DNA from: an uncultured Chlorobiaceae bacterium | GTDB lineage: Bacteria; Bacteroidota; Chlorobiia; Chlorobiales; Chlorobiaceae | Direction: 5' to 3' | Length of the DNA stretch: 43,446 nucleotides | NCBI GenBank assembly: GCA_903915955.1 | Contig: CAIWUU010000056.1 | Span: 1-43,446, forward strand | Shown here: positions 1 to 1,955 of the stretch, piece after piece | Layout: every line of letters starts with the position of its first letter | Position numbering within the stretch: position 1 is the first letter of the stretch | Program-made: the position numbers and the translations under genes | Notes under the pieces: generated by a model | Seen by the model: only the letters and a program-made list of their open reading frames with translations | Databases searched by the model: none | What the model was told of the DNA's origin: nothing

Positions 1-38
1 ACCACATCTCTTAAATGCAGCAGCAGCAGGTGATTTGA

Positions 39-157
39 AGTCTCCGCCTGTACGGCGACTCCGAGGGGCCCACCCTCATCTCTTGCGCAGCATAGCTGCA
101 CGGAGGACTCTCATCCTCCTGTGCGCCTTCGTGGCACACAGGCGTCGATATTTCGAC
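39..157. repeat. run of consecutive short stem-loops
   Basis: At least five perfect or near-perfect inverted repeats follow one another with almost no spacing: 45-48/54-57, 63-67/73-77, 87-91/95-99 (5 bp, loop ata), 102-107/114-119 (6 bp), 118-127/133-142 (10 positions, one mismatch, loop ttcgt) and 144-148/153-157 (5 bp, loop tatt). The frame that encodes the helicase-like protein downstream is closed here by a stop at 93-95, so this stretch is not normal hsdR sequence. It could be the end of an inserted element or a structured RNA. No reverse transcriptase, transposase or intron domain V is visible in the few bases available, so its identity is open. Confidence 0.5.
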
Positions 158-182
158 CGCAGGCAGACGCTTTGCCGTCATT

Positions 183-1955
183 GTGGACGAAGCGCACAGC
201 TCGCAGAGCGGCGAAACTGCCATGGAGCTGAAGAAAATTCTTAACCGTGAGGGGATTGAGTCGGCCATTGCCGAACAGATTCTCGACATGAACGACGAAC
301 CGCTCTCGGACGAGGCAAAACGCTCCATGCTGCGTGATCAAATAAAGCGAACGAAGCAACCGAACCTGAGCTTTTTCGCCTTTACGGCCACACCGAAGTT
401 CAAAACGCTTGCGGTGTTTGACGAGCCCGGACAAAACGGCACATCCCCCTTCCACCTCTACAGTATGCGTCAGGCCATTGAAGAGGGGTTCATTCTCGAT
501 GTGCTGCAAGGGTACACCTGCTACAAACGATATTATCAGTTGATCCGGACGGTCGAGGATGATCCCGAGCTGCCGAGAAGAAAGGCCGCACGAGCCCTTG
601 CCCGGTATGTTGATCTGCACGACTACAACATTACGCAGAAGGTTGAAATTATCGTTGAGCATTTCCGAACGCACACCCGCCACAAGATCGGCGGACAGGC
701 CAAGGCGATGGTGGTGACCGGCTCTCGTGAACATGCCGTGCGCTACAAACTGGCCTTCGACAGCTACCTGAAGGCTAAAAAGTACCACGACATTAAAACC
801 CTCGTCGCCTTTTCAGGTGAACTCTCTCTTGACGACCATCCCGGAATCAGGTTCACCGAAATACAGATGAACCACGGCATCAGGGAAACTGAGTTGCCTG
901 AGCGGTTTGCATCCAATGAGTTTCAGGTGCTGCTGGTGGCAGAAAAGTATCAGACAGGCTTTGACCAGCCCTTGCTGCATACCATGTACGTCGATAAAAG
1001 GCTCTCCGGCATTCAGGCAGTGCAGACCCTTTCACGCCTGAACCGCACCTGCCCCGGCAAGGAGAACACCTTTGTGCTTGATTTTGTGAACGACCCGGAA
1101 GAGATCTACCTCTCCTTCAAGCCCTATTACGAAACAACAGAGCAAGGTGAAGAGAGCGATCCGCATCAGCTCAACGAGCTTGAACACCAACTTGACCTGT
1201 GGAAGGTTTACGACCAGCCGGAGGTGAACTCGTGGTGCGAAATCTGGTTCAGCAACCGGATGCACCCTACCGGAGCAGAGCATAAAAAGCTGAACAGCAT
1301 CCTTGATGTCGTCGCTGAGCGGGTCAAAAAGCTTGAGGAGGAGGAGATTGATCTCTTCAAAAGCCAGTTTTCCAGCTTTCGGAACCTCTACGGATTCCTC
1401 TCGCAGGTTATCCCCTATCAGGATTCAGCTCTTGAAAAGCTCTACACCTTCGGGCGTTACCTGCTCGCAAAGCTTCCCCGCGACACAGGACGGCATATCA
1501 GCATTGATGATGAGGTGCAGTTGAAATACTACCGTCTGGAGAAGTACAGCGAAGGGGCCATTTCATTGAGGGAGGGAGAGGCACCTCCATTGACTGGCCC
1601 GAAAGAGGTCGGAACCGGAAGCGCAGATGAAGAGGTGCCCCTCTCCACACTGGTTGAACAGCTCAATGAACGGTTCGGCACCGATTTCACCCCTGCCGAT
1701 CAGCTCTTTTTTGATCAGTTGGAGTCTGCCGCCACAGAAAACGAAAAAATCCGGCAGGCGGCGGAGGCCAACACCCTCTCAAACTTCGAGCCGGTCTTTA
1801 ACCAGCAGTTCGAAACCCTGCTGCTCGACCGCATGAACGGCAACGAAGCCATCTTCAACCGCATCATGAACGACGATGCCTTCAAAAGCGCTATTGCGCA
1901 GAGGCTGATGCTCAACGTCTTCAAAAATCTCAACCAAATTATTTCCGCACCGTAA
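183..1955 (+). pseudogene. hsdR: type I restriction enzyme R subunit (HsdR), N-terminally truncated
   Basis: This is the C-terminal part of HsdR, the ATP-dependent DNA translocase and nuclease subunit of type I restriction systems. Reading opens just before a DEAH box (VDEAHSSQSGE), followed by FFAFTATP (about residues 64-71, motif III), then TGFD (258-261) and QTLSRLNR (281-288), the motif V and VI regions of the second RecA-like lobe, then the helical C-terminal region. The nuclease domain and Walker A motif, which should lie well upstream of the DEAH box in the same frame, are missing: the frame closes at 93-95 in unrelated stem-loop sequence. The GTG at 183 lies inside the DEAH motif and is only a formal start. 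No hsdM or hsdS lies downstream. The remnant is probably inactive, but the window edge hides what lies upstream. Confidence 0.8.

What the first reader, a model, noticed from the sequence alone, without database searches (positions are those of the whole stretch)
39..176. Dense run of stem-loops joined to a decapitated hsdR
Six or more short inverted repeats follow each other with little spacing over about 120 bases and stop where recognisable HsdR sequence begins (about 162-171). The HsdR frame has a stop at 93-95. This density is unusual and fits the structured end of an inserted element or an RNA gene. The family could not be recognised.
Basis: seen in the sequence. Interest (0 to 1): 0.5.

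Follow-up and report, generated by a model that had tools for sequence, protein, structure and literature searches.

The report
Group II intron end interrupting hsdR
The cluster of hairpins is the first 139 bases of an ordinary self-splicing mobile intron (a group II intron) that landed backwards inside a restriction-enzyme gene, seen only in part because the assembled contig stops inside the repeated intron.

Summary
The stem-loops are real. On the minus strand, window 139 to 1 is the 5' end of a bacterial group II intron: it starts GTGTG at 139, matches Rfam RF01999 at 77-1 (67.7 bits, gathering 36), and folds into six hairpins (z = -3.6) that covary across ten 5' ends. It lies antisense in hsdR between bases 139 and 140. 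In the relative L004 the uninterrupted hsdR agrees at 31 of 31 bases on the exon side and 6 of 30 on the intron side. The identical 139 bases end another contig (C124) beside different DNA. Full-length relatives are about 1.87 kb; one encodes a reverse transcriptase/maturase. Base 1 is a contig edge inside this repeat. The assembly lacks the intron interior and the first 404 residues of HsdR, and contig C111 stops inside hsdM of the same operon. So 'decapitated' is partly an assembly gap; the interruption is real. It is an ordinary find. Mildly interesting: five of ten aligned copies sit in the YxDD box of another reverse transcriptase gene.

The parts
1..139 (-). 5' end (first 139 nt, part of domain I) of a group II intron; reads from 139 (GTGTGCC) to 1, cut by the contig edge
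   Evidence: Rfam RF01999 at 77-1, 67.7 bits; GTGYG start; fold z -3.6; covariation; identical second copy with another flank; 94% identical to full introns
139..140 (.). intron/exon junction (insertion site in hsdR, antisense)
   Evidence: relatives' hsdR aligns from 140/141 on; L004 agrees at 31 of 31 exon-side and 6 of 30 intron-side bases
140..1955 (+). 3' part of hsdR (type I restriction subunit R), about residues 405-1007 of the intact protein; longest ORF with its own start is 183-1955 (590 aa)
   Evidence: Pfam T1R_D3-like and SWI2_SNF2; 96% identical to intact HsdR of a relative; ORF list
140..145 (-). candidate IBS1 (ACGCCT on the minus strand), pairing 5 of 6 with candidate EBS1 AGTCGT at intron nt 259 of the relatives
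   Evidence: weak, since 4.4% of all window 6-mers pair as well

Best explanation
A copy of a mobile group II intron (about 1.87 kb in its full relatives, one of which encodes an intact reverse transcriptase/maturase without a recognisable endonuclease domain) retrotransposed into the antisense strand of a chromosomal hsdR in a Chlorobiaceae genome. Shown: the 5' end, the exact junction, the antisense orientation, and a second identical copy. Inferred: the intron RNA chose the site by EBS-IBS pairing with a sequence resembling its usual target, reverse-spliced into the DNA and was reverse-transcribed. Because the intron is antisense to hsdR it cannot be spliced from hsdR mRNA, so HsdR is interrupted at about residue 405, after its N-terminal part and Walker A motif and before the DEAH box. 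The window begins at base 1 because the assembler broke inside the repeated intron (inferred).
For: Rfam RF01999 hit. GTGTG start with a sharp loss of hsdR identity at that base in 10 of 10 relatives compared. The same 139 bases at the end of contig C124 with different flanks. 82-94% identical 5' ends in six other genomes of the genus, three of them read as introns of about 1.87 kb ending GACTCGAC. The G065 copy encodes group_II_RT_mat, 456 bits, with RVT_1 and GIIM. A matching 3' end lies at the start of own contig C156. Covariation: 95.7% of cells paired and 12 two-sided pairs, reached by 0 of 500 shuffles and by no slide.
Against: Domain V, the RT and the 3' junction of this very copy are not in the window or the assembly, so it could be a 5' fragment rather than a full intron. 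The IBS1 match is only 5 of 6. Splicing and mobility were not tested.
Confidence: 0.95

Rival explanations
1. The copy in hsdR is a truncated 5' fragment of the intron, joined to other DNA, so hsdR really lost its front half.
For: The HsdR N-terminal 404 residues have no close match in the assembly, which is 97.76% complete, and no second 3' intron end is found. A 2013 paper says that most bacterial group II intron copies are truncated (PMC4028801, passages read).
Against: Contig C111 ends inside hsdM of the same operon, its last 110 bases 95% identical to the intact locus L005, so the missing stretch of about 5.85 kb between it and the window looks like one assembly gap. The contig edges at C56 and C124 fall 139 and 141 bases into the intron, as an assembly break at a repeat would give.
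Confidence: 0.2
2. The junction is a chimeric mis-assembly: an intron end from elsewhere wrongly joined to hsdR.
For: It lies at a contig edge; the sequence is a repeat; no reads were available.
Against: The junction falls exactly at the intron's GTGYG start, which a random mis-join would not do, and the flanking exon resembles the family's other target sites.
Confidence: 0.03
3. The hairpins are a stand-alone regulatory RNA or a repeat such as REP/BIME, unrelated to an intron.
For: Density of hairpins only.
Against: The Rfam hit and the full-length relatives with splice-type boundaries and an RT.
Confidence: 0.01

Closest known systems
Bacterial group II introns matching Rfam RF01999 (group-II-D1D4-2)
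   Same: 5' end GUGYG, domain I hairpins, 3' end AY in the full relatives, RT/maturase ORF of TIGR04416 in one of them
   Different: Only the first 139 nt are present here, at a contig edge
Related introns on enterobacterial (Shigella, E. coli) plasmids
   Same: 100% of the 139-base query covered at 81-84% identity in the best listed plasmid records
   Different: Other hosts; mostly no feature annotated there, once 'putative reverse transcriptase', a few times a transposase gene; not studied further
Thermosynechococcus and Methanosarcina twintrons (PMC2882425, PMC4424553, passages read)
   Same: Group II introns that use other group II introns as landing sites, as the relatives in G084 and G065 do
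   Different: The Thermosynechococcus inner introns insert between two start codons of the outer ORF (passage), not in the YxDD box; the copy in this window is in hsdR, not in an intron

Membership tests
group II intron | 5' boundary GUGYG | tested here: met
   GTGTG at 139-135 on the minus strand, exactly where hsdR identity stops
group II intron | domain I structure (Rfam covariance model) | tested here: met
   RF01999 67.7 bits against gathering 36, model 1-77 of 118, cut by the contig edge; covariation
group II intron | domain V/VI and 3' boundary AY in this copy | not testable with these tools
   Lies beyond the contig edge. A 3' end of the same family (96% over 135 bases) is at own contig C156, by synteny the likely partner of C124, not of this copy
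group II intron | intron-encoded RT/maturase | tested here: inconclusive
   Absent from the own assembly (interior missing); present in relative G065 (TIGR04416 456 bits, RVT_1, GIIM)
group II intron | multiple copies with different flanks | tested here: met
   Two identical 5' ends in the own genome with unrelated flanks
group II intron | splicing and retrohoming activity | not testable with these tools
   Needs an experiment

The most novel reading that the evidence does not exclude
The intron belongs to a lineage whose regular home is the catalytic YxDD box of other reverse transcriptase genes (group II introns and perhaps a DGR-like RT), so it may silence its competitors unless spliced out, with hsdR hit as an off-target site resembling that box.
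Probability: 0.4. Interest if true: 0.4.

Novelty: new member of a known kind. Interest (0 to 1): 0.15.

Why it matters
It explains the odd contig start and the broken hsdR, and gives an annotation: intron 5' end plus a disrupted type I restriction gene, not a new RNA. It warns that 'decapitated' genes at contig edges in fragmented assemblies may be repeat breaks. The target-site pattern of the relatives (YxDD boxes of other reverse transcriptases) would be worth a proper survey.

Tried and rejected
Rejected: REP/BIME repeat, riboswitch or stand-alone RNA gene (Rfam gives only RF01999 here). L012 and L086 looked at first like the same interruption but are internal deletions of hsdR. Own contig C156 was considered as the other side of the hsdR copy; its flank is not hsdR, and its later sequence lies beside the C124 homologue in relatives L122 and L120, so it is the likely partner of C124. 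The IBS1-EBS1 pairing is too weak to carry weight: 4.4% of window 6-mers pair equally well, the G084 site pairs only 5 of 6 with that EBS1, and the C124 site only 4 of 6. The RT-like flank in G080 had no Pfam hit and only weak NCBIfam hits, all far below their cut-offs; its likeness to a DGR reverse transcriptase is recalled, from no call.

Literature: five searches. Passages were read in PMC4424553, PMC2882425, PMC8919778 and PMC4028801; the rest were seen as search listings only. No description of group II introns homing to YxDD boxes was seen in these, but the library lacks most subscription papers, and this is not a claim that it is unpublished.

Full report
What is there. Window 1-139 carries, on the minus strand, the 5' end of a group II intron. 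Rfam matches RF01999 (group-II-D1D4-2) at 77-1 with 67.7 bits (gathering score 36), cut at its 3' side by the contig edge. The sequence begins GTGTGCC at 139. Folded as RNA it forms six hairpins that account for most of the stretch (-62.9 kcal/mol, z = -3.6, 0 of 200 shuffles as good). In an alignment of ten 5' ends (9 distinct rows: the two own copies, six other genomes of the genus, Metabacillus and Serratia symbiotica), 95.7% of cells are paired, and 12 of 45 pairs change on both sides. None of 500 shuffles and none of six slides reaches these values. The structure was taken from the window's own sequence, which favours it on the first measure. The Rfam model covers only the part 77-1; the three hairpins nearest the junction rest on this alignment, and one of them (helix 3) has no two-sided change.

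Where it sits. The window is contig C56 of a 201-contig, 2.52 Mb genome. The named relatives with a homologous hsdR are mostly Chlorobiaceae MAGs (10 of 12 loci are Chlorobiaceae or Chlorobiota), and one of them (L003) has the same coordinates and full identity as genome G084 of the window's genus. hsdR homology begins at base 140/141. In 10 of 10 relatives compared, 23-31 of 31 bases agree on the exon side and 5-7 of 30 on the intron side; L004 agrees at all 31. In L003 and L005-L011 the HsdR frame runs open through this place; in L004 it does so from its contig edge, and L012 is internally deleted. So the intron was inserted between 139 and 140, antisense to hsdR, at about residue 405 of 1007. 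The window's hsdR remnant keeps the DEAH box and later domains and lacks the N-terminal part with the Walker A motif (motifs recalled and read from the intact protein).

Other copies. The same 139 bases end contig C124 (5775-5913 of 5915), with an unrelated flank. Of 86 genomes of the family, the own genome included, 23 have a match at E up to 1e-4; those covering 118-139 bases at 82-94% identity are in six other genomes (G084, G065, G072, G080, G073, G049), and the rest match 46-72 bases and look like other introns of the type. G084, G065 and G049 could be read to an end GACTCGAC about 1.87 kb on. The G065 copy has an intact ORF: group_II_RT_mat 456 bits, RVT_1 and GIIM, no endonuclease domain found. 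Its closest solved structure by sequence is the GsI-IIC RT, 6ar1.

Why the window starts here. The own assembly has two 5' ends (C56, C124) and one 3' end (C156, first 135 bases, 96%) and no interior. C156 downstream lies next to the C124 homologue in L122 and L120, so C124 and C156 probably bracket one copy, and the 3' end of the hsdR copy is missing. So is the front of HsdR: the best match to residues 1-404 is at 26% identity. Contig C111 ends inside hsdM, its last 110 bases matching the first 110 of L005 at 95%; only scattered short matches to the next 5.85 kb of L005 exist in the assembly. The simplest reading is a gap between C111 and C56, but a real loss is not excluded.

How it works (inferred). 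The intron RNA with its RT recognises a DNA target by base pairing, reverse-splices and is copied. The 5' exons of the ten aligned copies were compared. Five end in the YxDD codons of a reverse transcriptase-like frame (G084 YADD, G065 YTDD, G080 YVDD, G073 YCDD, Metabacillus YADD). For G084, G065 and G073 the flank matches group II RT/maturase; G080 has only weak RT hits, and the Metabacillus frame has stops. G084 and G065 also show parts of an outer intron (RF02005 and RF00029; RF02001). The other five (this window, C124, G072, G049, Serratia symbiotica) are not in such a box as far as read; the Serratia flank was not translated. The hsdR site (ATCGACGCCT) resembles the box (GCCGACGACC), but the pairing with the candidate EBS1 is 5 of 6 and weak as evidence.

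Verdict. A correct observation with a correct general guess, now identified as an ordinary mobile group II intron and a contig break most likely caused by the repeat.

Noticed in passing
L100 1427/1428, L101 3047/3048, L103 2270/2271, L105 118/119, L114 2459/2460: Relatives of this intron sit exactly after the YxDD codons of another reverse transcriptase gene (five of ten aligned copies), so the active site of that RT is split.
   Followed up: partly
L103 about 2030-2270: The interrupted gene in G080 reads like a diversity-generating-retroelement RT (likeness recalled; no Pfam hit, weak NCBIfam hits only).
   Followed up: partly
L012 4919-6543 and L086 1504-2013: Two other relatives carry hsdR with internal deletions, so this hsdR seems to decay repeatedly in the genus.
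   Followed up: no
G000 contigs C95, C140, C159 (5' ends) and C50, C93, C136 (3' ends): A second, multi-copy group II intron family also lies at contig edges in the same genome; pairing of these 5' and 3' ends was not tested.
   Followed up: no
L113 137 to about 6200 (own contig C156): About 6 kb, including an ORF with TPR-like and membrane-protein stretches (likeness recalled), lies between the intron 3' end and the stretch that in relatives adjoins the C124 region: a further local insertion.
   Followed up: no
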